A model generated the notes under the pieces. The model searched no databases, was not told the origin of the DNA, and was given only the letters and a program-made list of their open reading frames with translations. From Chitinophaga pinensis (GTDB lineage Bacteria; Bacteroidota; Bacteroidia; Flavobacteriales_D; Crocinitomicaceae): DNA of 64,000 bases. The position numbers were made by a program, and so were the translations under genes. Numbering within the stretch: the first letter of the stretch is position 1; each line of letters starts with the position of its first letter. Shown here piece by piece: positions 22,920-62,045 of the stretch. Where the stretch lies: assembly GCA_945902745.1 (NCBI GenBank), contig CAMDNE010000003.1, forward strand, positions 1-64,000, in the 5' to 3' direction.

Positions 22920-24314
22920 CTATTTTAGAAAATGCATTTCAACTCTTCTATTTTTTGCTTGTCCTTCTTCAGTATCGTTATCAGCGATAGGATTTGATTC
23001 CCCATAATAATAAAGATCAATTCGATTTGCATCAACACCATTGGAAACAAGCATATCCTTTACAGCTTGAACACGGTTTTTAGAAAGCAGCATGTTATAT
23101 TCATCTGTTCCATTATTATCTGTGTGCCCATCCAATCGGATTCTTAGATCTTGTCTAATCAACAGTAGATTTGTCAGAGATTCCAATTCTCCATATGATT
23201 TCTTCAAAATGATTGCTTTATCGTGTTCGAATTCTAATTTTCTCGAAGCTAAATCTAACACACGATTAGCATCTTGATCAGAAATTCTATTCACATTTGG
23301 CTCATTGATATAGATTGTATCAACACGTTCTACAATCAATGTATCCGTTTTGTATTCAATTGCATAAACAGTATCCACTTTTTGAACCGGTGTTTCAGCA
23401 TACAGTGAATCTAGCATCGGTTTTTTCTTCTTACACAACTTCAATCCAATAATTATTTCATGCGAACCAGAACTGTATTTTGCGATGTTTTGAAGTGGAA
23501 CTTCGTACGCATAACCAATAAAAAACAAATTTTGAATGTTTACACCTACTCTACCGATTAATCCTACTTGCGTGCGATATCCGATTCCACCGTGAATGAA
23601 ATTCTTATAGTTTACATCTGCATTAATATCAAATTGATTGGTATTATTAATTCCTTTATAGAGAACAGATGGTTTCACACTGAATTTCTGATTCACTTGA
23701 AACTTATATCCAAGTAAACCAACCATGTGTCTTCTCAAGCCATAACCATCTAAACCAGTGTATCCAAAATTTGAAAAAGACTGAATAACTTGCTTCGATG
23801 CAAATGAAAGTTCCAATCCTTTGAATTGATATAGAAAACCAACTTCTGAATTGATGGAAGACGAAGATTGACTTCCACCATTTACAATGACATCTTGTGC
23901 ATCAAACGCAATTGCACCTGTAGGATTTAATCGAAATTGGTAGTAGCCTCCTGTGATACCAATACGAACATGATGCACTTTGGCGATGTTTAAACCGTAA
24001 GCGATTGAACCTGAAGCTGCAACTTGCTGCAACATACCCAATTTATCTATCAAAACGTTTCCACCAATGCCAAGGGATTTTCCAATTCGCGTATTTGCAC
24101 TAAATAAACTCGTTATCGGCGCTCCGTCAACTTTTACCCATTGGTTGAGGTGTGAAAAGAAGATTTCCGCACAACCACTTGCTCCAGCATATGCAGGATT
24201 CAATGAATATTTATTATACGAATAGACATTCGACTGTGGCGTTTGTTGGGCAAACGAACTCAAGCTTATTATGGAACAAGCTATGATTAAACTAGTAGTT
24301 AATATATTTTTCAT
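22920..24314 (-). CDS. PorP/SprF-family protein fused to OmpA domain
   Basis: A 464-residue exported protein. Signal peptide MKNILTTSLIIACSIISLSS; a PorP/SprF barrel about 22-295, opening with the family pattern N-V-Y-S-Y-N-K-Y-S-L-N-P-A-Y-A-G-A-S-G and containing I-G-G-N-V-L-I-D-K-L-G. A 50-residue Val/Thr/Asp linker follows (V-D-T-V-Y-A and D-T-L-I-V-E-R-V-D-T-I), then an OmpA peptidoglycan-binding domain 350-464 (L-D-G-H-T-D-N-N-G and A-K-N-R-R-V-E-M). PorP/SprF proteins hold or finish export of T9SS cargo with type B sorting domains. The cargo gene lies just upstream (6-bp gap). The OmpA fusion would tie the barrel to the cell wall. The standard PorP/SprF protein is about 300 residues, so the extra domain is notable. 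Confidence 0.88.
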   Translation of the reverse strand: MKNILTTSLIIACSIISLSSFAQQTPQSNVYSYNKYSLNPAYAGASGCAEIFFSHLNQWVKVDGAPITSLFSANTRIGKSLGIGGNVLIDKLGMLQQVAASGSIAYGLNIAKVHHVRIGITGGYYQFRLNPTGAIAFDAQDVIVNGGSQSSSSINSEVGFLYQFKGLELSFASKQVIQSFSNFGYTGLDGYGLRRHMVGLLGYKFQVNQKFSVKPSVLYKGINNTNQFDINADVNYKNFIHGGIGYRTQVGLIGRVGVNIQNLFFIGYAYEVPLQNIAKYSSGSHEIIIGLKLCKKKKPMLDSLYAETPVQKVDTVYAIEYKTDTLIVERVDTIYINEPNVNRISDQDANRVLDLASRKLEFEHDKAIILKKSYGELESLTNLLLIRQDLRIRLDGHTDNNGTDEYNMLLSKNRVQAVKDMLVSNGVDANRIDLYYYGESNPIADNDTEEGQAKNRRVEMHFLK

Positions 24315-24320
24315 AGCTCC

Positions 24321-27300
24321 TTATTTTTTAAATCTGAATAAGTTGACCGTTCCTTTGTATTCTGTATCAGAACACTTTATGGAATAATAATAAACCCCAT
24401 CAGGCAAAGGTTCGCCGTCTTTGGTTCCTCCCCACTCATTTTGATAATCATTAGATTGATACACTGGCTGACCCCAGCGGTTATAGATTATAGTCGTACA
24501 TCCTGCAATTTGTGTATAATCTGAAATCTTCCACGTATCGTTTTGACCATCTTCATTCGGTGTAACGATGTTACTTATTTCGAAAGGACCATCACAATTT
24601 TGAACTGCCAATTCCAAATGTACTATTGAATCACAACCCGATGCCGTTTGAAACACCTCATCGTAAAGTCCACTTAATGACAATGTTTGAGTTCCGAACA
24701 CATACGTTTCTCCTTCACAGATTGTTGTATCTCTGTAAAATTCAATTGCATCGTCAACAAATAAATAAAGAGTTACGCTTGAATCACACCCTGAGGCGGT
24801 TTGAAATTGCTGTGGATACGTTCCTGATACATTCAACACTTGTGTTCCAAATGTATAGGTTTGTCCAGCACATATTGTTGCCGAATAAGACGAAGATAAA
24901 ATTGGATTCACATTTAAATACAAGGTTACCAGAGAATCGCATCCTGAGAGTGTAGTAAACGATTCTGTGTACGTACCAGAACTAGCAAGTGTTTGACTTC
25001 CCAAACTATAATTTTGACCTTGACAAATTGCTGCTGTAATTGATCCTATTATCGTTGGATTGACGGTCAAGTATAGTCGTTCTATTGAGTCGCATCCATT
25101 TATAGTACTCAAGGTGTTTAAATAGGTTCCTGATGCAGATAATACCGTTGAACCAAAAGTATACGATTGGCCATTGCAAATTGAAACAAAAACATTGCTC
25201 GTATCAATTGGTAGAACTGTTAAGAACAAAGTAACAATAGAATCACATCCTCCAACAGCAACAAGCGTATTAGAATAAGTTCCTTCAACGGTTAAACTAG
25301 TAGCACCAAACGAATATGAATCACCTTGACAAATAGTAGCACTTGAATTTGATGTCAATGTTGAGGCAACAAATAAGGTGGTCGTAATCGTACTATCGCA
25401 TCCATTTGCTGCAACAAGTACATCCGTGTAAATTCCAGAAGTGCTATACGTACTTGTACCAACATTAATCGAACTTCCTTGACAAATAGTAAATGTTTGA
25501 GCAAACGTTACAGGTTGAATGACAGAAATAGTCGTATAAATTGTACTATCACAGCCATTTACAGCTGGAAAAACATCTGTATACAAACCTGCAGTTGTTT
25601 GATTTGCTCCTTCCAAGAAAATACTTTGTCCGTTGCAGATTGTTGTTGCAACAAAATTCACATTCGGATTTGTTATACATGGATTTGCACACAAGGAAGC
25701 ATCTATTGTAAAGGAATAAGGACACGCTCCATCCGAAATTGAAATGGTATATATTTCCGCTGATGGAACAGGGAAAACGACATTTGCTCCAGCCGCAAAA
25801 CTACCCGTAGCAACAATATTATTCGTCGAATTTTGAATAGTATATGTGAAGTTTGAACTATAATAAGTAGCTAAACCTCCCGAGCTTGTGAAATTGATTT
25901 CACACAATGCGCTGTTATAGCTAGAAACAGGAACAATAGGTTGTAAATAAACCACTGGCACACCATTTTCAACTGTTGCACTAATACACGTTAAATCTCC
26001 CCAAGTCGCTGGTTCATCCGCCATTGGTGAAACGTAATACAATTGGTTGAATAATGGGTTTCCAAAAGTTCCAGAACCATTTGTGTTATTTACAAATACA
26101 CCATTTTCAGTTTGAACTGAATCAATAAAAGTAAATCCAGTGTTAGCAACAGGATCTGGAACAGGATTTGTTGAATGAATAACATAACCCAACTGTAAAC
26201 AAGATGGAATATCAAGTGTTGTCAAACCTATTCCATTTAATAGGATTCCAGGACTTAACGTATCACCAAAGCAAACAAATGCCGTATCTGCCGAAGCAAC
26301 ATCAATAATATCTCCATTTGCGATTTCCACAAAAACATCTCCTGCATCGCTTGCTACTTCTCGAATATATTCGATGATGTATTGCCCTTCATCTCCTGGA
26401 GAACCTCCATCAAGTTGAATAGCGTATATCGTTCCTGGTGTCAAGCAGCACATTGATTCTTGATTACCTGTGAAACCAGCAGAACCTTGAAGTAAAGGTG
26501 TGATAATTGGAGTTGTTTGTGTTCCATCTGTAGTATAGGTTGCAGGATTCAATCCGCCATAACAATCTGTTCCATTTAATAATTCATAAACAGAATAACG
26601 CAAAAGATTCATTCCAATATACGCTCTAATATTCATTTCAATAGCACCTGAAGGCGGAGCAACAAAATAATGCCATACCGTTTGATTTGCACAATTTGCA
26701 GCTAAAGGATCAATTGCAGGTTCACCTGCTAAATATTCTCTACAAGCAAATTCGTTTGTTCCAGCAACCGCTTGAAATGGAGGAGTTACTCCAGCTGGCG
26801 TTACAACTACTTCATATAACGGGTCGATTGTCGTTAAACAAAGAATATCGTTCCCTGGAGGATTAACTACTGGATCAACAACCGATGGATCGTATAACCA
26901 ATTATTAATATTTTGCGCATTGAAAAGTGTTAAACCGTTAGCAGGATCTACCATCCCGAAATATTTGTAACCCGGCTCCATGCAGCGTGCATCAATACGC
27001 GCACTTTGCGAAGCTCCTCCTAAAAATCCATTTAAGCCACCATCTGCAGCGTACAATACTTCAAGATTTGCACATGAATAATCTGAAGGAATTCCTGGAG
27101 AAAAACGGTCATCAAATCCAAATAATGCTGAGCTTTCAGAAAAAATGGTGCTTTGATAATCTGTTTCAAAAATCATACGACCATTATTCGGCGCAACAAA
27201 ATTCAACCATACACTTTCATTCACATCATTGTTATTAGCCGCAACGTGATTGTAATCATACGCATGGTACTGATTTGGATTTGGAGAAGTATGAGGAGCT

Positions 27301-28541
27301 CCTGTTTCACCATAATTATTTCCACCGTCCAAAGCACATCCAAACGTTAAATTTGCTGTAACTGGAGAACCCAACGCTGATGTTATAACTGCCGCTAAAG
27401 GACTCACTGTGCTAGATAAACAAGGAATATCTTCAATATCAGGGGCACTTCCTCCAAAACTATTCACTTGAATTTGAAAATATCCACGATCTGTGGGATT
27501 ATCAGCTGTAAATTGAACATAATAAGTTTGTCCAGGAATTAATTTCTGATAACTAAAGGGAGAAACAGGATCACAAGCATCTAAAATAATTTCTGCCTCG
27601 GGGTCAATCCCTAAGAAATCAGTTCCATCAGAAAATTCTATGTGCGATAAGTACTCAAATTTATCTTTGATCAATAGTGACGTTATAGGTTGCACACCAG
27701 TAACACATGAACTTGCGTCTGCAGCATGGTAAATTTCAAAATAGGTTCCTAATTCCGTTCCACCAAGATCAGAAGTAATCCCAACAGCGCCGCTTGCAGG
27801 AGCAATAAAACTAAACCATCCCGAGCCACTTGCCGCAACATTACTTGATGCAGGTTCATTTGGTTCGAGTGTATAGTCACACCAAGCATACGCATAAGTA
27901 GTGTTCAATGTTAAAGATGCCGCATCGCAAATAGCATCTTCTAAATAGTTTACAATTAAAGGCGAGCGAATAACTTCAATCGTAATTATATAATTTTGGG
28001 TACCACAACCACTACTACCACTTGCGTTAAATGTTTGTATTACAGTACCGGAAAACGCAGGTACCGCGATTATTCCATTTTGTCCACTGGTTTCTAAGTC
28101 TGAAAAAGCACCACCCGTTAAATCGTAATTCGTGGGAGCATCATTTTCATATCCTTGCCATTCGATCGCAATATTTGTTGGAACATCGGTTGGGCAGAGA
28201 TAATCGTGGTTAAAGAATATACCATCATTAGGATTGATGTCTGGGTGAGAAGCCGTTCTGACCCAAGGGCCATTATTGTTATTTACAAAAGCGTGATTAA
28301 AATCTCCAAGGAAACCAAATAAAACCGGACTGTTGTTAGAAAAACCCAAAGTGTTATCGGTTGCCAAATATTCAAACACAAAATCACTGTTTCCGGTAAG
28401 AAACCCATCACAATCCACATTATTCAATACTTCAACGGATATTACACGTACTTTGATATTTGCTTGACCAATCGAAAAATTGGCGTTAAAAAATAGCAGT
28501 AGCATAATAGTCCGAACACAAAATGTTCGAAATTTTTTCAT
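24321..28541 (-). CDS. T9SS type B secreted repeat protein
   Basis: A 1406-residue cell-surface protein with signal peptide (MKKFRTFCVRTIMLLLFFNA). The first 960 residues are several beta domains with phrases such as S-G-W-F-S-F-I-A-P-A-S-G, W-L-N-F-V-A-P-N-N-G and W-H-Y-F-V-A-P-P-S-G, a recurring jelly-roll-like module. Residues about 965-1318 are seven 50-residue repeats, each with I-C-x-G and G-C-D-S. The last 87 residues (V-T-P-N-E-D-G-Q-N-D-T-W, Y-N-R-W-G, P-D-G-V-Y-Y-Y) are the gliding-motility-associated type B sorting domain. Cargo of this kind is exported by T9SS with a PorP/SprF partner, here the next gene. An adhesin-like role is likely but not shown. Confidence 0.9.
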   Translation of the reverse strand: MKKFRTFCVRTIMLLLFFNANFSIGQANIKVRVISVEVLNNVDCDGFLTGNSDFVFEYLATDNTLGFSNNSPVLFGFLGDFNHAFVNNNNGPWVRTASHPDINPNDGIFFNHDYLCPTDVPTNIAIEWQGYENDAPTNYDLTGGAFSDLETSGQNGIIAVPAFSGTVIQTFNASGSSGCGTQNYIITIEVIRSPLIVNYLEDAICDAASLTLNTTYAYAWCDYTLEPNEPASSNVAASGSGWFSFIAPASGAVGITSDLGGTELGTYFEIYHAADASSCVTGVQPITSLLIKDKFEYLSHIEFSDGTDFLGIDPEAEIILDACDPVSPFSYQKLIPGQTYYVQFTADNPTDRGYFQIQVNSFGGSAPDIEDIPCLSSTVSPLAAVITSALGSPVTANLTFGCALDGGNNYGETGAPHTSPNPNQYHAYDYNHVAANNNDVNESVWLNFVAPNNGRMIFETDYQSTIFSESSALFGFDDRFSPGIPSDYSCANLEVLYAADGGLNGFLGGASQSARIDARCMEPGYKYFGMVDPANGLTLFNAQNINNWLYDPSVVDPVVNPPGNDILCLTTIDPLYEVVVTPAGVTPPFQAVAGTNEFACREYLAGEPAIDPLAANCANQTVWHYFVAPPSGAIEMNIRAYIGMNLLRYSVYELLNGTDCYGGLNPATYTTDGTQTTPIITPLLQGSAGFTGNQESMCCLTPGTIYAIQLDGGSPGDEGQYIIEYIREVASDAGDVFVEIANGDIIDVASADTAFVCFGDTLSPGILLNGIGLTTLDIPSCLQLGYVIHSTNPVPDPVANTGFTFIDSVQTENGVFVNNTNGSGTFGNPLFNQLYYVSPMADEPATWGDLTCISATVENGVPVVYLQPIVPVSSYNSALCEINFTSSGGLATYYSSNFTYTIQNSTNNIVATGSFAAGANVVFPVPSAEIYTISISDGACPYSFTIDASLCANPCITNPNVNFVATTICNGQSIFLEGANQTTAGLYTDVFPAVNGCDSTIYTTISVIQPVTFAQTFTICQGSSINVGTSTYSTSGIYTDVLVAANGCDSTITTTLFVASTLTSNSSATICQGDSYSFGATSLTVEGTYSNTLVAVGGCDSIVTLFLTVLPIDTSNVFVSICNGQSYTFGSTVLSASGTYLNTLSTINGCDSIERLYLTVNPTIIGSITAAICQGQNYSLGSQTLASSGTYTESFTTLSGCDSLVTLYLNVNPILSSSYSATICAGQTYTFGTQVLNVSGTYPQQFQTASGCDSSVTLYLFVDDAIEFYRDTTICEGETYVFGTQTLSLSGLYDEVFQTASGCDSIVHLELAVQNCDGPFEISNIVTPNEDGQNDTWKISDYTQIAGCTTIIYNRWGQPVYQSNDYQNEWGGTKDGEPLPDGVYYYSIKCSDTEYKGTVNLFRFKK
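24590..25650 (-). repeat. Seven in-frame 50-codon repeats
   Basis: Seven consecutive protein repeats of about 50 residues, pattern x-I-C-x-G-x-x-Y-x-F-G-x-x-x-L-x-x-S-G-T-Y, then G-C-D-S and L-x-L-x-V. Copies differ at many positions at DNA level, so the array is old rather than freshly expanded. Each unit has exactly two cysteines and could be closed by one disulphide. Confidence 0.9.
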
Positions 28542-41030: not shown

Positions 41031-43958
41031 ATGAAAAAAATCTACTTTCTTCTGATACTTCTAGTATCTATTAATTATTCTTTTTCCCAACAACACGTTG
41101 AAAAAGAATCGAATAACTCCCAGAATTTAAATTCTAAAAAGCTTGGCACTCTGCCAAACTCAAGTAAAACTATTCATGAAAAAACAAATGAAAAGCCAAG
41201 TGGTTTTGGGAATCACACGTGTAAAACGCACGAACTAACAGAAAAACATTATGCTGAACGAGGAATTTTAAAAGAGTTCAATGATGATTATAAAAGTGCT
41301 ACTTCAAAAGTAAAAGGTCCTCAAATTGTTAAAACTCCAGGTGTAAATAATATTTCTGTAATTTTTCATGTTGTTTATAATCCAAATAATCCTGCAGAAA
41401 ATGTATCGAATGCTCTAATTATGCAAGTTTTTGCTGATATTCAAGAAGATTATCAGCTACTAAATGCTAATGCAGTAAATGCGCGCAGTAGTTTCGGATT
41501 CGTGCCTTCAGATGCTAATATTAATTTTTGTTTAGCAACGCAAACAGCGGCTGGTGTTCCTTTGTCAGAAGTTGGTGTTATTCGGGTTTCAACAGCCGAA
41601 GATTGGTACGATTCAAATAATGGTGAAGAGAACAAAATGAAAGCTTCAGCTACGGGAGGGTCTCAAATTTGGAATAGAAATAACTATTTGAATGTTTGGA
41701 TTTGTGATATTTCAAATGGTGCTAATTCAGGTACGGCTGGTTATGCTTATCGTCCTACAACATCTTTTTTACCATCTTCAACAATTGATGGTATTGTCTT
41801 AGATTACAATTTAGGGATGAACAATGAAAATGTTTTAACACATGAAATTGGTCATTTCTTAGGATTGGATCATACTTGGGGAGGTTCTGGAAGTTGTTCA
41901 ATGGATGACGGTTTTACAGATACTCCAAACACAGCAGGACCTTCTTTCAATTATGCTGGCTCTTGTTCTGGAAACCAATCAACATGCTCTGGTGTTCAAA
42001 CTCAATATGAGAACTATATGGATTACAGTAATTGTACTGTTATGTTTACACAAAATCAAGCTGATTTTATGCTCGTTATTTTATCTGGCATTAGAGGTTC
42101 GCTTTTATTGTCATCTGGTTGTAATCCAGTTAACGCTCCACCTGTGGCAGATTTCAATGCAGATTTAAGTCCACCGATTATTGTACCTGTTGGTGGGTCT
42201 GTGAATTTCTTTGACCTATCTTCAAATGTTCCGACCGGCTGGACATGGAATTTTGGAGGAGGAGCATCAAATCAATCTGTTCAAAATCCATCTGTTACGT
42301 TTAATACTGTAGGAACATACACTGTTACTTTAACAGCTTCTAATGGTTACGGGAGCGACCAAGAAGTGAAAGCTGCTTATGTTCAAGTTGTTGCTGCTGC
42401 TGCTGGAACAGCATGTGATACATTAAGAAATTATCTTCCTTTAACCGAAGCAGAAGCATACTACAATTGGTCGAGTGGATGGGGATTCTTTCCAGGTCAT
42501 GGTAGATATTCTACAACACCTCAGTCTCAAATCTACCAATATGCCGATCGATTTACTGCACCTGCAACTACCTTTGTTAGAAGATTACGTTTTCCTATCG
42601 CTAAAGCTGTAAATCAAAGTGGAACTGGTTTCATGAAAATCAGAATACAAACTGATGTTGCAGGCAGTCCAGGCGCCATATCAGGTGTTGATACATTATT
42701 AATTTCCGATATGAATGCTGGATTCTATAATGAATTTGACTTCACAATACCCGTTTCTGTAACTGGAAATTTCTGGGTTACCTTCGAAATGTTCTATGGC
42801 TCACCCCAAGATTCTATTTCGTTGTATTGTGTAGATTTTAATTATAGAAATGGCACAATTGCTACAGGTTTAAATACAATGAAATGTTATTATGGAGGAG
42901 CTACTAGTACTACTGGTATATGGCATGTCCCAACAGATATAAACCCAATTTGCAAATCAAGTCTTTGGTTGGACGTTTTAACTTCAAATGGTCCAGCACC
43001 TGTGGCAGATTTTACCTTCTCTGAAAGTCAAGTTTGTGCAGGTGGTCAAATTACTGTAAATGGTTCTTCTTCCACAAATACAACTAATTATTATTGGTAT
43101 GTAACTGACGACCCTTTTACGACTATCATATCACAAAGTAGTACTGCAGGAAATAATTTTACTTTTCCGACTGCGGCAAACAGAAGAATCTATTTATTTG
43201 CGGATGGTTCGTGTATGACAGATGGATTATATCTACCTGTTGTTGTTAATGCTGTTCCAACTGCAACTGTTGTAAGCACAAATACAACATGTGGTATCAA
43301 TAACGGTTCTATAACAATATCGAATCCTTTGGGTGGAGACACACCAAATTACACTTACAGTATTGATGGAATAAACTATCAAGTTTCCGGTTCATTTACA
43401 AGTTTAGCACCTGGAACTTACACTGTTTACATTCTTACTCCAGGCGATAATTGTATAAAAACATATACAAAGGTTATAACCGCTTCTACAGAATTAGTAG
43501 CGACAGTTAGCCCTAGTGTTACTATTTGTCCAGGTGATTCGCCAACCTTAACTGCAAGTGGAGGAACAGGTTATACTTGGTATGATGGATCTACAAATAT
43601 TGGCAGTACAGCATCAATTACCGTTACTCCAACAGCAACAAGTCAATATAGCTGTGTTGTAACAGATGGAACTTGTCAAGCAACAGTTTATACGTATGTT
43701 ACAGTTGATGTTTGTGGTGGAATAGATGAATTATCCTCCCAGGTTAATATTTACCCTAATCCAACTAATGGTCTCTTCACAATTGAAGTTCCAGGTGATT
43801 TCAACTATAAACTTTATGATGCAAGAGGCCGATTAATTGCAAATGGCGAAGCAAATGAATTAGTTGATTTATCGATTAAATCATATGAAAGTGGCATTTA
43901 CTTCATTGATATCTCAACCGATAAGTTTGAAAATACCTTTAAAATTGTCAAAAAGTAA
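41031..43958 (+). CDS. Secreted M43-type zinc metallopeptidase with PKD domain and T9SS type A signal
   Basis: A 975-residue extracellular protease. Signal peptide MKKIYFLLILLVSINYSFSQ; propeptide-like Lys/Asn-rich region to about 100; metzincin catalytic domain with H271-E272-x2-H275-x5-H281 (H-E-I-G-H-F-L-G-L-D-H) and a Met-turn Y-E-N-Y-M-D-Y. A PKD domain at about 375-455 has V-P-T-G-W-T-W-N-F-G-G-G and Y-T-V-T-L-T-A-S-N. Further beta domains follow, then a C-terminal type A sorting domain (V-N-I-Y-P-N-P-T-N-G-L-F-T-I, ending F-K-I-V-K-K). Pappalysin-like M43 enzymes degrade proteins outside the cell. Confidence 0.92.
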   Translation: MKKIYFLLILLVSINYSFSQQHVEKESNNSQNLNSKKLGTLPNSSKTIHEKTNEKPSGFGNHTCKTHELTEKHYAERGILKEFNDDYKSATSKVKGPQIVKTPGVNNISVIFHVVYNPNNPAENVSNALIMQVFADIQEDYQLLNANAVNARSSFGFVPSDANINFCLATQTAAGVPLSEVGVIRVSTAEDWYDSNNGEENKMKASATGGSQIWNRNNYLNVWICDISNGANSGTAGYAYRPTTSFLPSSTIDGIVLDYNLGMNNENVLTHEIGHFLGLDHTWGGSGSCSMDDGFTDTPNTAGPSFNYAGSCSGNQSTCSGVQTQYENYMDYSNCTVMFTQNQADFMLVILSGIRGSLLLSSGCNPVNAPPVADFNADLSPPIIVPVGGSVNFFDLSSNVPTGWTWNFGGGASNQSVQNPSVTFNTVGTYTVTLTASNGYGSDQEVKAAYVQVVAAAAGTACDTLRNYLPLTEAEAYYNWSSGWGFFPGHGRYSTTPQSQIYQYADRFTAPATTFVRRLRFPIAKAVNQSGTGFMKIRIQTDVAGSPGAISGVDTLLISDMNAGFYNEFDFTIPVSVTGNFWVTFEMFYGSPQDSISLYCVDFNYRNGTIATGLNTMKCYYGGATSTTGIWHVPTDINPICKSSLWLDVLTSNGPAPVADFTFSESQVCAGGQITVNGSSSTNTTNYYWYVTDDPFTTIISQSSTAGNNFTFPTAANRRIYLFADGSCMTDGLYLPVVVNAVPTATVVSTNTTCGINNGSITISNPLGGDTPNYTYSIDGINYQVSGSFTSLAPGTYTVYILTPGDNCIKTYTKVITASTELVATVSPSVTICPGDSPTLTASGGTGYTWYDGSTNIGSTASITVTPTATSQYSCVVTDGTCQATVYTYVTVDVCGGIDELSSQVNIYPNPTNGLFTIEVPGDFNYKLYDARGRLIANGEANELVDLSIKSYESGIYFIDISTDKFENTFKIVKK

Positions 43959-44025: not shown

Positions 44026-46290
44026 CTATTCTTTAATAAATGGAATTGTTGTCACTTTATTGTTTTCGGATAAAATTCGAATGGTATAATAACCGGAATT
44101 CCAATTCATAGATGGTACTTCTGTAATTTTTTCTTGAGTAACAGTTTCATAAAGTTTTCTACCTTGAAGATCTATTATTTGAACTGTTAATTTTCCCTCC
44201 TCCTTTGATGAAATAAATACATTTCCACTTGTAGGAACAGGATATACCGAAACATTTAATGGCAACAAATCTTCACTTATTGAAAGGAAGCAATTATTTG
44301 AAGCTGCAAACGTAGGATTTCCATACGTAAATGTCCCAGCATCAGGACAACGAGCATAGGCAACATCAGTTGTTTGAATTGGGAAATTTATTCCATCCAA
44401 TACCGTAACGCCATCGCTGATTATTACTGATTCACCGTTGATTCCCAATTTAAAATTAGCATGTAAACCAGATTGTAAGGTGTCATTGTCAGCCCAAACG
44501 ATTAAATATTCATTTGCTGTAATCCCTGTTCCTGCTGGAAATTGCCATTTCGCCAAATTGAAGATATCATCGGACAAGTATAATCCACTTAAATTCAAAC
44601 CTGTTGTTGTTGTGTTATAGATTTCAATCCAGTCGTTGCTTTCCCCATTTGCATCATAAGCAGATACTGTGTTATCCGCCATTAATTCATTCACAACAAT
44701 TTGTCCAGCTGTTGGAGCAGGAAGCGTAACCATTAATGTATGGTATTCATGCTCCGCTCTTTGCGGACTAAACAATCCAGCATTCGAATTTTCCGCATAG
44801 ATGTAATATTCCAACATGACACAATTCAAAGTTACCGATGCGCCATAAACATGGTCACCTGCAGCTCCATCGTTATGCGCTCCATCATCAAACATTTGAA
44901 CACGTGTAAATTTTGATGGTGTATCCATTCGATATCCTAAATAGACAGTTGTTTCATTTGAACATGTAGCTGTAAGTGTAATTGTTTGGCCATAAGAAGG
45001 AGAAACAACACTTGAAGCATAAGCCGAAATAGCTGGAGCCGCTAAAATATAATTGGCATTTGAACTAAAAAACGTCGCTCTTGCATCCATCAATGCTTTA
45101 ATTCCAGGAATTGAACCACCAGGTCCTCCTGTTGTGACAGAAGTCGTTAAACCGTTAATAAACTGCGTATAGGTAAAGAATTTATATGGATCGGCAAGTA
45201 CAGAAGCGTCAATAGTTGATCTAAGAGTGTTTGCCGTTGTAACATACAATGAAGAAGCAAACATCTCTTGAACTATTGTACGAATATGCGCCATGTACAT
45301 TCTATTATATTGAGCATTTCCTAATAATTTAACAATCAATGGGTGGATTGATGATGCATTATTTGACATTGGATCTAATGTAGTTGCTGTATAGGGTCCA
45401 GAACCCGTTCCACCTGGAAAACCTCCAAAACTCATGTTATAATCCCAACCAATTGGCAGAAAACGTTCGTTTAAATCCTTATATAAATAATAGTTTTGTC
45501 TGAATGCCCCGGAATAAGAATCCAAATTCACTAAAACATTGTTAAAAGCCAACATCCAAAGTGCTCTATCAACGTCAAGAATACTTTCAATTGCTGTAAA
45601 ATTATTATTCAAGGTGTCAATCATTTCGACTAAATCATTCCAACCATAAGTTGATTTCAACTCATATCCATTCGCATATGAACTACTATCTGAGTTGATG
45701 TATTTTAAATCAGGACTAACAGTTGCACCAGGTCCTGCTCCACCAACTGGATTACATTTAAAAAATGAACCGTTCGAAGAATAGAAATGATCGCCATTGA
45801 ACTTGTCATTAATACTTTCAGCACTTGAATATAAACCTCTCAAAGTTCCATTGATATAGACATTCGAGAAATTTGCCTTTGGACAATCCATATATTGTTC
45901 TAAAATAGCATAGGAAAGAACTTCACGAATCATTGAAGGGTCTTGATAGCCATTTTGCAATTTCACATCGGTATATCCTTGGTAATCGTAACTTCCATGA
46001 ACCCAATCTAAAGAAATATGAATTGGATTTTTATTATTATTTGCATTGTATGAACTATTCCCTTTGTACTTCACTCCTACACTATCGAAAACAACACCAT
46101 TAATTCGAACCGAATCTGCTAATAAATAGTCTTCAGTTGAAGCAGCTAATGCATCCATTTGAGCATCCCAAGTTGGGGATGTGAAAAATATTTCAATTGT
46201 TTGGACTGTTGCTCTGTCATAAAAGTCTTGTGAAAACGACAAATTCGCTTGTAAACAGACAATTCCGATAATAAAACTAATTCTTTTCAT
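44026..46290 (-). CDS. Secreted CotH-kinase-like protein with lamin-tail domain and T9SS type A signal
   Basis: A 754-residue secreted protein. Signal peptide (MKRISFIIGIVCLQANLSFS); CotH domain about 60-420 with G-V-K-Y-K-G-N-S-S-Y-N, D-V-K-L-Q-N-G-Y-Q-D-P-S and R-G-L-Y-S-S-A-E-S-I-N-D-K-F. A lamin-tail domain at about 535-650 has I-V-V-N-E-L-M-A-D-N and S-N-D-W-I-E-I-Y-N-T. A type A sorting domain ends the protein (V-S-V-Y-P-V-P-T-S-G-N-V). CotH of Bacillus is a spore-coat protein kinase; secreted CotH proteins in Bacteroidota are of unknown substrate, and some associate with cellulosomes or polysaccharide use. Confidence 0.9.
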   Translation of the reverse strand: MKRISFIIGIVCLQANLSFSQDFYDRATVQTIEIFFTSPTWDAQMDALAASTEDYLLADSVRINGVVFDSVGVKYKGNSSYNANNNKNPIHISLDWVHGSYDYQGYTDVKLQNGYQDPSMIREVLSYAILEQYMDCPKANFSNVYINGTLRGLYSSAESINDKFNGDHFYSSNGSFFKCNPVGGAGPGATVSPDLKYINSDSSSYANGYELKSTYGWNDLVEMIDTLNNNFTAIESILDVDRALWMLAFNNVLVNLDSYSGAFRQNYYLYKDLNERFLPIGWDYNMSFGGFPGGTGSGPYTATTLDPMSNNASSIHPLIVKLLGNAQYNRMYMAHIRTIVQEMFASSLYVTTANTLRSTIDASVLADPYKFFTYTQFINGLTTSVTTGGPGGSIPGIKALMDARATFFSSNANYILAAPAISAYASSVVSPSYGQTITLTATCSNETTVYLGYRMDTPSKFTRVQMFDDGAHNDGAAGDHVYGASVTLNCVMLEYYIYAENSNAGLFSPQRAEHEYHTLMVTLPAPTAGQIVVNELMADNTVSAYDANGESNDWIEIYNTTTTGLNLSGLYLSDDIFNLAKWQFPAGTGITANEYLIVWADNDTLQSGLHANFKLGINGESVIISDGVTVLDGINFPIQTTDVAYARCPDAGTFTYGNPTFAASNNCFLSISEDLLPLNVSVYPVPTSGNVFISSKEEGKLTVQIIDLQGRKLYETVTQEKITEVPSMNWNSGYYTIRILSENNKVTTIPFIKE

Positions 46291-59948: not shown

Positions 59949-62045
59949 ATGAAAAATATTACCCTTTTTTATTTCTTGCTTTTTTCTCCACTGTTTTTGT
60001 TTTCTCAATTAACAGATGACGAAGTTTTTCAATTAATTCAGAATGGATCTGAACAACAACTAGTTTCTGAAAATTCGCGAATGATGCAAGAGAATCTTCT
60101 TTATCACGCAGAAATGGTTGCTGATAAACTTTTAACTTTAAAACCTGAAAGTTCAAATTACAATTATCGAAAAGGTTTTTTAGTGCTAGAGATTAGAAAA
60201 GACTATATGAAGGCCATTCCTTTTTTGGAAAAGGCTATACTAAAAACTGACGCAAATTATGATGCTTATGGTGTTTCTGAAAAAAGTGCTCCAGCTGATG
60301 CCTTTTTTCACTTAGCTACTTGTTATCATCTAAATGAAGATATAGAAAAAGCTAAATTATATTACAACAGTTTTCTTGCAGCATCAAAGGATAAATCAGA
60401 GTTGATTGCAGTTACCAACTTACGACTAGTTCAGTGTGAACGTGCAATTGAAGCAATGGCAAATCCAGTAAATGTTCGCTTAAAAAACATTGGTAATAAA
60501 ATTAACGGCGAATTTCCCGATTATGCTCCCGTAGTTTCTTTGGATGGCTCTTCATTATTTTATACATCACGCCGGCCATGGGCAAATGGTGAAACAGAAG
60601 TGTTTAGAGATCCTGGTATTAATCAATATCCTGAAGATGTATATGTTAGTTATTTGAGTGATGATTCAGTTTGGATGGAACCGAAACGTTTAGAATTTTG
60701 TCTCCCAAAAAGAAATGAAGCTACAATCGCTGTAAGTACTGACGAACGAAAAATCTATTTGTATGAAGATTCTACTGGCAATGGAGATATTTATTATACA
60801 GACTTTTACGCGAGTAAATTCAGTGACATCCAAAAAGTGACAGACAAGGATATCAATACGAAGTACTGGGAAACACACTGCATGGTTTCGCATGATAGAT
60901 CAAGAATGTTCTTTACTTCTGATAGACCAGGGGGAATGGGCGGAAGAGATATTTATATGTCTAAAAGACGCGCAGATAGTACATGGTCAAACCCAATTAA
61001 TTTAGGTCCACGTGTTAATACTGCTCACGATGAAGATGCACCATTTGTATCTATAGACAATAAAATGCTTTATTTCTCAACAAATGGTGAAAAAAGTATT
61101 GGAGGATTTGATATTATGGTGTGTGATTTATTGGAAGATGATACTTGGTCAGATTCTAGAAATTTAGGTTATCCATTCAATTCTACAAATGATGATATTT
61201 TTTACACTACTACAAGTGATGGTTTAAGAGGCTATATGACATCTTTTAGAAAAGATGGATACGGTGAAAAGGATATTTATGAAATATACAATGATTACTT
61301 AGGTGTTAAAAACATTGCTGTATTTAAAGGAGTGATTAAAACACTTGACAACTCCCCTCTTCCAGAAGATTTTGCGGTAAACATTAAATTAACGTGTGAA
61401 GATTGTGAAGACTTTGAGAAAAACAGAGTTATTTTCCCTCGTCTTAGAGATGGATTATTCATGTCTGGTTTAAAACCATGTAAAACATACACTATAGCTT
61501 ACTTTAATGCTTCTGACAGTAAGGTAATGTATGAAGAATCATTCACAACAGAATGTAATCTTGATTATCAAGAAATCAATAGAGAATTAATCTTAGATGT
61601 CCCTAACCGTGCCATAATAGTACCTAAGGACACTATTAAAGTAATTGATCCAATCGATATTGTTTCATACAAAAATCTTGAGTTCTTACATTATTTTGAT
61701 TACAATAAAAACAAATTGTACACAGATAAAGGGAAATTAAAAGATTTCATTAAAGAAGTTGAAGCTCAATTGAAGGAAGGACGACCATCGATTACAATAA
61801 ATGTATATTCTTCTGCTTCGCATGTTCCAACCAAAACTTATGAAACAAACGAAAAATTAACAACGATTCGTGCCGAGAACATGAAATATGACATTTTTAC
61901 TTATTTTGAATCAAAACCTGAATTTAAAGGAAAAGTAAATGTTGTAATTGTTTCAGCAATAGTTGATGGACCTGAATATGTTAATGACTCTGCTAAACAA
62001 AAGAAATACAAACCTTATCAGTTTGTCGGTCTGAAAACTGAATAA
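59949..62045 (+). CDS. TPR/PD40 propeller protein with degenerate OmpA end, paralogue B
   Basis: A 698-residue paralogue of the preceding protein, colinear through signal peptide, TPR (Y-H-L-N-E-D-I-E-K-A), propeller (F-T-S-D-R-P-G-G-M-G-G-R-D-I-Y) and the first beta domain. After the shared E-L-I-L-D-V it lacks the second regulatory-like domain, about 80 residues. The C-terminal OmpA-like part keeps Y-F-D-Y-N-K-N-K-L and an I-R-A-E-N-M helix, but the peptidoglycan-binding H-T-D loop reads Y-S-S-A-S-H and the closing N-R-R motif is missing. It has its own terminator. It probably no longer binds peptidoglycan in the usual way and may pair with paralogue A (inference). Confidence 0.85.
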   Translation: MKNITLFYFLLFSPLFLFSQLTDDEVFQLIQNGSEQQLVSENSRMMQENLLYHAEMVADKLLTLKPESSNYNYRKGFLVLEIRKDYMKAIPFLEKAILKTDANYDAYGVSEKSAPADAFFHLATCYHLNEDIEKAKLYYNSFLAASKDKSELIAVTNLRLVQCERAIEAMANPVNVRLKNIGNKINGEFPDYAPVVSLDGSSLFYTSRRPWANGETEVFRDPGINQYPEDVYVSYLSDDSVWMEPKRLEFCLPKRNEATIAVSTDERKIYLYEDSTGNGDIYYTDFYASKFSDIQKVTDKDINTKYWETHCMVSHDRSRMFFTSDRPGGMGGRDIYMSKRRADSTWSNPINLGPRVNTAHDEDAPFVSIDNKMLYFSTNGEKSIGGFDIMVCDLLEDDTWSDSRNLGYPFNSTNDDIFYTTTSDGLRGYMTSFRKDGYGEKDIYEIYNDYLGVKNIAVFKGVIKTLDNSPLPEDFAVNIKLTCEDCEDFEKNRVIFPRLRDGLFMSGLKPCKTYTIAYFNASDSKVMYEESFTTECNLDYQEINRELILDVPNRAIIVPKDTIKVIDPIDIVSYKNLEFLHYFDYNKNKLYTDKGKLKDFIKEVEAQLKEGRPSITINVYSSASHVPTKTYETNEKLTTIRAENMKYDIFTYFESKPEFKGKVNVVIVSAIVDGPEYVNDSAKQKKYKPYQFVGLKTE

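What the first reader, a model, noticed from the sequence alone, without database searches (positions are those of the whole stretch)
22920..24314. PorP/SprF barrel fused to an OmpA peptidoglycan-binding domain
PorP/SprF proteins are normally about 300 residues. Here the barrel is followed by a repetitive V-D-T linker and a full OmpA domain with G-H-T-D and N-R-R motifs. A T9SS cargo-holding barrel anchored directly to the cell wall would combine two roles usually split between separate proteins.
Basis: partly seen in the sequence, partly recalled or inferred. Interest (0 to 1): 0.6.

Follow-up and report, generated by a model that had tools for sequence, protein, structure and literature searches.

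The report
Secretion carrier fused to wall anchor
A bacterial outer-membrane protein of the kind that carries and holds a surface protein is here built in one piece with a domain of the kind that grips the cell wall, a real and conserved design that lets one test what decides whether surface proteins stay put or move.

Summary
The gene at 22920-24314 (minus strand) encodes one 464-residue protein: signal peptide, complete 14-strand PorP/SprF barrel, disordered Asp-Thr-rich linker, complete OmpA-like domain. It is not a frameshift: 68 of 240 genomes of its family carry it with one match across both domains. It is not the common form: 1295 PorP/SprF matches in 100 family genomes, OmpA fusions found in 13 of these genomes. 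The three residues that hold peptidoglycan in PorE are invariant in 40 of 40 orthologues. A type B T9SS cargo gene lies directly upstream in 41 of 42 named loci. Of 18 unfused carriers in this genome, 4 have a separate OmpA-bearing gene next door; fused loci do not. Best explanation: a dedicated carrier that secretes its neighbour, then pins it to the wall. The larger surprise lies beyond the finding: PorP barrels gained wall-binding tails more than once, of two unrelated kinds (OmpA, SPOR, once both). The papers seen do not describe this. New variant of a known kind. Wall binding and immobility are inferred, not shown.

The parts
22920..24314 (-). whole gene: PorP/SprF barrel fused to an OmpA-like peptidoglycan-binding domain, 464 aa
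24249..24314 (-). signal peptide, residues 1-22 (read from the sequence)
   Evidence: no signal-peptide program was run
23433..24248 (-). 14-strand FadL-type barrel, residues 23-294
   Evidence: PF11751; model; VIA-align Z 25.4 to chain F of a T9SS translocon complex, 8gl6_F
24171..24173 (-). Cys48, just before strand 1; with Cys294 one of only two cysteines of the mature protein
   Evidence: 40 of 40 orthologues; co-occurs with Cys294
23433..23435 (-). Cys294, just after strand 14
23265..23432 (-). linker, residues 295-350, largely disordered in the model, with a DT...DT motif (Asp324-Thr325, Asp332-Thr333)
22923..23264 (-). OmpA-like domain, residues 351-464
   Evidence: PF00691; VIA-align Z 19.2 to 5wtp_C
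23118..23120 (-). Asp399, equivalent by spacing to PorE Asp576, peptidoglycan (DAP) pocket
   Evidence: 40 of 40; PorE residues from PMC7192894
23094..23096 (-). Asn407, equivalent by spacing to PorE Asn584, DAP pocket
23073..23075 (-). Arg414, equivalent by spacing to PorE Arg591, DAP pocket
24321..28541 (-). presumed cognate cargo, 1406 aa, T9SS type B sorting domain; 6 nt upstream of the carrier
24336..24581 (-). type B C-terminal sorting domain of the cargo
   Evidence: TIGR04131 67.5 bits, cut-off 35; PF13585
24627..25640 (-). seven repeats with a period of exactly 51 residues in the cargo (pattern matches between residues 968 and 1305), each with two cysteines

Best explanation
It is a dedicated T9SS type B carrier that is also its own wall anchor. 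Proposed working: cargo (24321-28541) and carrier are made from one operon; the cargo's type B C-terminal domain leaves the SprA translocon bound to the PorP-type barrel; the cargo stays on the barrel at the cell surface; the linker lets the C-terminal OmpA domain reach the wall and grip the DAP stem peptide, so that cargo and barrel are held in a fixed place. In one polypeptide it does what PorP plus the separate lipoprotein PorE are proposed to do together for static type B proteins. Shown here: architecture, pocket residues, gene order, conservation, absence of the SprF gliding tail. Inferred: one transcript, secretion of this cargo by this barrel, wall binding in the cell, immobility.
For: Both domains complete and over cut-off. 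DAP-pocket triad Asp399/Asn407/Arg414, same spacing (0, +8, +15) as PorE Asp576/Asn584/Arg591, in 40 of 40 orthologues. Type B cargo gene directly upstream, same strand, gap -1 to 45 nt in 41 of 42 named loci; the other has only 208 nt of upstream sequence; 20 of 20 fetched divergent long carriers too. In the same genome 4 of 18 unfused carriers have a separate OmpA-bearing gene directly downstream, whereas in 0 of 36 fused loci with a visible next gene was OmpA found in it (these are orthologues, not independent cases, and some next genes are cut by contig ends). SprA and GldJ are present. The SprF-type twin-cysteine tail that ties SprF to the moving track (PMC12635249, passages) is absent. 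In F. johnsoniae the static cargo Fjoh_3952 goes with a PorE-like gene, and the cargos named as dynamic do not (PMC12618676, passages).
Against: No experiment. Cargo genes also precede 13 of the 18 unfused carriers here, so the neighbourhood supports carrier function, not anchoring. In PMC12618676 the C-terminal domain of Fjoh_1123, which has no PorE-like gene in its operon, gave mostly static foci (moving ones in 3% of cells), so a static cargo does not need such a gene. Cys294 sits where a link to GldK could in principle form. In the wide alignment 9 of 20 OmpA tails lack the Asp of the pocket, so wall binding may not hold for every fusion. The model is of moderate confidence (mean pLDDT 74.2, pTM 0.52).
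Confidence: 0.7

Rival explanations
1. General envelope tether: the protein mainly staples outer membrane to wall, as OmpA or OprF do, and the barrel is just a membrane plug; the neighbouring cargo is a leftover of its origin.
For: Barrel + linker + OmpA domain is the layout of OmpA/OprF (recalled), and the best-matching solved OmpA domain is that of a Bacteroidota OmpA (5wtp, 5wtl).
Against: The barrel is of the 14-strand PorP/FadL type; the cargo gene stays directly upstream in 41 of 42 named loci although the genes downstream change, so the pair is kept together.
Confidence: 0.12
2. Still a mobile gliding-type carrier: Cys294 (or another contact) links it to the moving GldK track, and the OmpA domain only touches the wall transiently or serves another contact.
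For: Cys294 is invariant (40 of 40) and lies just after the barrel, near where SprF has its C-tail; SprF is tied to GldK by a cysteine (PMC12635249, passages).
Against: No Cys-X-Cys tail. Cys294 keeps company with Cys48 (62 both, 38 neither, 3 with one, of 103 PorP frames; many of these are close relatives), and the two flank strands 1 and 14, which close the barrel, so an internal disulfide is likelier. The pocket residues are all kept.
Confidence: 0.1
3. Machine-placing role: the OmpA domain holds the carrier near T9SS sites (as PorE is proposed to help anchor the PorK/N ring) rather than fixing the displayed cargo.
For: PorE-PorP complexes contain small amounts of PorK and PorN (PMC9143113, passages).
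Against: The fusion is one of about 20 PorP genes of this genome, with its own cargo gene, and lacks the TPR and propeller parts of PorE; a core role should not be so patchily distributed (74 of 240 family genomes with a full or partial match).
Confidence: 0.06
4. Artefact: a frameshift, assembly join or mis-called stop merges two genes.
For: None found.
Against: Same uninterrupted frame in independent genomes down to 43% identity.
Confidence: 0.01

Closest known systems
PorP-PorE pair of Porphyromonas gingivalis with type B protein PG1035 (PMC9143113, passages; PorE structure PMC7192894, passages)
   Same: PorP-family barrel holding a type B protein, coupled to an OmpA-like domain with the same three DAP-binding residues
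   Different: Two proteins there, one here; no TPR, propeller or carboxypeptidase-regulatory domain found here; no separate lipoprotein, the barrel itself is the membrane anchor
SprF, carrier of the gliding adhesin SprB in Flavobacterium johnsoniae (PMC12635249 and PMC12618676, passages)
   Same: PorP/SprF barrel encoded directly downstream of its type B cargo
   Different: SprF ends in a Cys-X-Cys tail bonded to GldK of the moving track; this protein has no such tail and ends in an OmpA-like domain
Fjoh_3952 / Fjoh_3951 / Fjoh_3950 (type B cargo, carrier, PorE-like; PMC12618676, passages)
   Same: Same three functions side by side; the cargo is static in that study
   Different: Carrier and PorE-like protein are separate genes there; the authors offer the wall-bound complex as a speculation
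OmpA / OprF outer-membrane proteins
   Same: Barrel, linker, OmpA domain in one chain (recalled; OmpA-domain structures matched)
   Different: Different barrel family; no cargo gene; no secretion role (recalled)

Membership tests
PorP/SprF type IX carrier | full-length PF11751 / TIGR03519 match over the curated cut-off | tested here: met
   193 bits vs 22.3; 209.9 bits vs 90.55
PorP/SprF type IX carrier | 14-strand FadL-type barrel | tested here: met
   14 strands in the model; Z 23.2-26.2 to FadL chains and 24.8-25.4 to chain F of T9SS translocon structures
PorP/SprF type IX carrier | type B cargo gene directly upstream (usual, not universal) | tested here: met
   window: 6 nt; 41 of 42 named loci
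PorP/SprF type IX carrier | binds and secretes its type B cargo | not testable with these tools
   needs experiment
SprF gliding-type carrier | Cys-X-Cys in a periplasmic C-tail | tested here: not met
   cysteines only at 13 (signal peptide), 48, 294; motif from PMC12635249 (passages)
OmpA-like peptidoglycan-binding domain | PF00691 over cut-off, full length | tested here: met
   75.3 bits vs 27.2, model 2-98 of 98
OmpA-like peptidoglycan-binding domain | Asp/Asn/Arg side chains that bind DAP | tested here: met
   same spacing as in PorE, 40 of 40 orthologues; PMC7192894 (passages)
OmpA-like peptidoglycan-binding domain | binds peptidoglycan | not testable with these tools
   needs experiment
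PorE | TPR + beta-propeller + regulatory domain before the OmpA domain | tested here: not met
   only PF11751 and PF00691 found at E up to 1; NF052230 T9SS_PorE 51.1 bits vs cut-off 600
Type B T9SS substrate (the upstream protein) | TIGR04131 over cut-off at the C-terminus | tested here: met
   62 bits vs 35, residues 1321-1402

The most novel reading that the evidence does not exclude
The tail after the PorP barrel is an address label. Barrels with a cysteine tail ride the gliding track, barrels with an OmpA tail (or an OmpA-bearing partner) are fixed to the wall, and barrels with a SPOR tail send their cargo to places with bare glycan strands such as the division site. OmpA and SPOR tails were each gained more than once.
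Probability: 0.3. Interest if true: 0.8.

Novelty: new variant of a known kind. Interest (0 to 1): 0.6.

Why it matters
How type B proteins are fixed or moved after secretion is an open question; the PorP-PorE wall link is proposed from pull-downs, cross-links and gene order. A natural one-chain fusion is independent evidence that carrier and wall binder work together, and it is a ready-made tool: cutting, mutating or swapping the tail should switch a cargo between static and mobile. Fusion to two unrelated wall-binding domains, more than once, suggests that selection favours this link.

Tried and rejected
Frameshift or assembly join: rejected. Fusion as the commonest PorP form: rejected. BamG, another FadL-type barrel: the model matches BAM-complex barrels too (9n2d_B, Z 22.5; BamG as FadL family from passages of PMC12611786), but TIGR03519/PF11751 place the protein with PorP. 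A single origin of all wall-binding tails: rejected on the tree, p-AU 0.012, with the caution that rows were gathered largely by searches with fused queries and that several branches are long. Rows dropped there: of 105 distinct PorP frames one with a short barrel match, then near-copies, leaving 82; L109 (barrel cut by the contig end, so labelled plain) was left out of the final counts and the test. Before that step, and with the one OmpA+SPOR row as a class of its own, the table gave 6 changes for OmpA and 3 for SPOR.

The phylum sample with the narrow profile A1 (E up to 1e-40) listed no fusion but the window's own; the wider profile A2 showed four long frames outside the order among the listed rows, all four with OmpA or SPOR tails. 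The row lists were cut by the tool and only a few candidates per genome were scored, so these are lower bounds.

The long frame L019 of the own genome (561 aa) is not counted with the tailed carriers: its extra part is N-terminal and Pfam found only the PorP domain. L143 is the same place as L121, fetched again.

Cargo fold (mean pLDDT 65.6, pTM 0.38) and its Foldseek search showed a mostly beta model without a convincing relative. Viral fold library: OmpA-domain and generic barrel matches. Promoter and terminator scan: fewer sites than in shuffles. The linker DT motif (47 of 49 frames of the main group, 1 of 15 OmpA-only divergent ones) has no explanation yet; a stricter pattern fitted only 18 of 40 orthologues.

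Paper searches for the fusion (searches returned no paper): none of the listed titles and starts of abstracts, nor the passages read in seven papers, describes it. The library lacks preprints and most subscription journals, and supplements were not open to me.

Full report
WHAT IS THERE. The minus-strand frame 22920-24314 (464 aa, ATG) carries a complete PorP/SprF domain (residues 21-290) and a complete OmpA domain (362-456), both far over Pfam's cut-offs; NCBIfam agrees for the barrel. An AlphaFold2 model from 40 orthologues (mean pLDDT 74.2, pTM 0.52) has 14 barrel strands between residues 49 and 293, a linker with pLDDT under 50 at 298-318 and 326-340, and an OmpA fold. VIA-align 2 gives, for the barrel, Z 26.2 to FadL (3pgr, rmsd 2.6, 257 aligned) and Z 25.4 to chain F of a T9SS translocon complex (8gl6_F, rmsd 2.9, 263 aligned; that this chain is PorV is recalled); for the C-terminal part Z 19.2 to the OmpA domain of Capnocytophaga gingivalis (5wtp_C, rmsd 2.1, 122 aligned). 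Foldseek also lists the PorE domain 6top (rank 12, E 2.9e-8). A profile search of PDB sequences listed, in the 60 rows shown of 78, matches to the OmpA part.

THE WALL-BINDING POCKET. In PorE the side chains of Asp576, Asn584 and Arg591 bind the DAP residue (PMC7192894, passages read). The window protein has Asp399, Asn407 and Arg414 with the same spacing; each is present in 40 of 40 sequences of alignment A4, whose mean column identity is 61%. In the wider alignment A2 the Arg is in 20 of 20, the Asn in 19 of 20, the Asp in 11 of 20, so the more distant OmpA tails may bind differently or not at all.

THE NEIGHBOUR. Six bases upstream ends a 1406-residue protein with a type B T9SS sorting domain. 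In the 42 named loci with a PorP match (L072-L113; the 43rd, L114, matched only residues 392-463 and was dropped) a gene with this domain lies directly upstream on the same strand in 41, gap -1 to 45 nt; the remaining one, L096, has only 208 nt of upstream sequence. The gene after the carrier varies: among the 36 loci where one is visible it is on the same or the opposite strand and of many lengths, and in none did the local HMM find an OmpA domain in it (some of these genes are cut by contig ends); one locus (L087) has an OmpA gene 1.2 kb on. The cargo has seven repeats with a period of 51 residues before its sorting domain; with one pattern nine orthologues give 2 to 7. Its N-terminal part is well conserved (63% mean column identity over 30 sequences) and mostly beta in a low-confidence model.

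THE HOST'S OTHER CARRIERS. The genome has 20 PF11751 matches (one search lists 19); 19 are usable, one is a contig-edge piece. A type B gene is directly upstream of 14 of the 19, the window's included, so this pairing is general (one of the 14, L014, is a weak match). Of the 18 without an OmpA tail, 4 have a separate OmpA-bearing gene directly downstream: a 713 aa protein with TPR, PD40 and OmpA domains as in PorE, a 762 aa one with PD40, a regulatory-like domain and OmpA (TPR below the cut-off), a 533 aa protein, and a 320 aa OmpA protein with a lipoprotein-like start. A fifth carrier (L156) is followed by a 746 aa TPR protein in which Pfam found no OmpA domain. The genome has 46 type B matches, 40 over the cut-off, one SprA and one GldJ over the cut-off when its two matches in one frame are summed.

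HOW COMMON. In the 240 genomes of the family searched, my count from the listing gives 68 with one match across barrel, linker and OmpA domain at 43% identity or more (two of them stop short, at residues 442 and 448), plus 6 with partial matches only (not all checked to be contig ends): 74 of 240, in three genera only. Eight further matches at 30 to 37% identity span both domains. The records named are metagenome-assembled genomes, most labelled Flavobacteriales or Bacteroidetes, several Crocinitomicaceae; the name of the family rests on these titles. One search scored only six candidates per genome, so 13 is a lower bound. In a sample of 395 genomes of the phylum the strict profile listed no fusion outside the window's own genome; the wider one listed four long frames outside the order (list cut), which proved to be two OmpA and two SPOR fusions.

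RECURRENT WALL-BINDING TAILS. I fetched 20 loci (L115-L134) whose PorP frame looked long or whose match spanned both domains: all 20 have a type B gene directly upstream. Fourteen have an OmpA tail (by Pfam or local HMM; weak for L118 and L120), and six align together with a SPOR tail. Eight more long ones (L135-L142) all have the type B gene too. Of the 16 long carriers given to Pfam, 12 carry OmpA or SPOR over the cut-off and one of these (L117) carries both; L127, L130, L132 and L139 do not reach it, and their SPOR label rests on alignment or on a local HMM, which for the first three was built with them. With the SPOR profile 30 matches in 25 of 199 genomes of the order span the model to position 478 or beyond (my count, list cut); 4 of the 30 were fetched. 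Linkers differ: Asp-Thr-rich and disordered in the window's group, thrombospondin type 3 repeats in L121, L137 and L138, coiled-coil-like matches below cut-off in some of the SPOR group. On a tree of 82 barrels the presence of a wall-binding tail needs at least 3 changes, OmpA 4, SPOR 4, and one clade of all tailed barrels is rejected with p-AU 0.012. Sampling was largely by fused queries and several branches are long, so this supports repeated gain without fixing the number; changes may also be losses.

TWO CYSTEINES. The mature protein has only Cys48 and Cys294, each in 40 of 40 orthologues, directly before strand 1 and after strand 14. Over 103 distinct PorP frames both are present in 62, neither in 38, one alone in 3, of which one is a truncated frame; most of the 62 are close relatives, so these are not independent events. 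As strands 1 and 14 close the barrel, I infer a periplasmic disulfide at the seam. SprF instead has a Cys-X-Cys tail, one Cys of which bonds to GldK of the moving track (PMC12635249, passages and outline).

MECHANISM. Type B proteins stay bound to their PorP-type carrier, and PorP binds PorE, whose C-terminal domain binds peptidoglycan (PMC9143113, passages). In F. johnsoniae the cargo Fjoh_3952, whose carrier gene is followed by a PorE-like gene, showed only static foci; the cargos the authors call dynamic (SprB, Fjoh_4750, Fjoh_1123) lack a PorE-like gene in their operons, and the wall-bound complex is called a speculation (PMC12618676, passages). Against a simple rule, most foci with the Fjoh_1123 domain were static as well. 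The window protein joins the two halves in one chain, with 60 to 81 residues between Cys294 and Phe362 of the OmpA domain. I therefore think it secretes its upstream neighbour and holds it at a fixed place on the wall (confidence 0.7). Secretion, wall binding and immobility are inferred.

NOVELTY. Nine paper searches gave no description of a PorP/SprF protein fused to an OmpA or SPOR domain in what I saw (titles, starts of abstracts, passages of seven papers). The kind, a T9SS carrier with a wall link, is known; the one-chain form and its recurrence with SPOR are, as far as these searches go, new.

Noticed in passing
L128, L129, L131, L135, L136, L142 (Pfam); L127, L130, L132, L139-L141 (local model); L117 (OmpA and SPOR): PorP/SprF barrels fused to a SPOR domain, directly downstream of type B cargo genes. 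SPOR domains bind bare glycan strands at division sites (recalled), so these may send cargo to the septum.
   Followed up: partly
L019 497-3641 (own genome, G000:C18): Operon-like run of an ECF sigma factor, a 561 aa protein with an N-terminal part that resembles an anti-sigma factor (by eye, no family match), one likely membrane helix and a C-terminal PorP barrel, and a plain PorP: may be a sensor that spans both membranes.
   Followed up: partly
L005 1441-2406 and L006 1441-2397 (own genome): Two PorP genes, one beside GldJ and one in the sigma factor run, differing in 1 of 300 residues after the signal peptide but with different signal peptides.
   Followed up: partly
L149, L150, L151, L156, L158, L162 (own genome): These plain PorP proteins end in a short tail with a Cys-Pro near the C-terminus, perhaps a one-cysteine counterpart of the SprF tail that bonds to GldK.
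   Followed up: no
window 23265-23432: The otherwise variable linker keeps a DT-x5-7-DT motif in 47 of 49 frames of the main group and in 1 of 15 divergent OmpA fusions; function unknown.
   Followed up: partly
window 24627-25640: Seven cargo repeats with a period of exactly 51 residues, each with two cysteines; nine orthologues checked with one pattern give 2 to 7.
   Followed up: partly
window 59949-62045: 698 aa protein with PD40 propeller repeats and a weak TPR match but no OmpA match: PorE-like without the wall-binding end.
   Followed up: no
window 41031-43958 and 44026-46290: Two proteins with the T9SS type A sorting domain, side by side on opposite strands: an M43 metallopeptidase with a PKD domain and a CotH kinase protein with a lamin-tail domain.
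   Followed up: no
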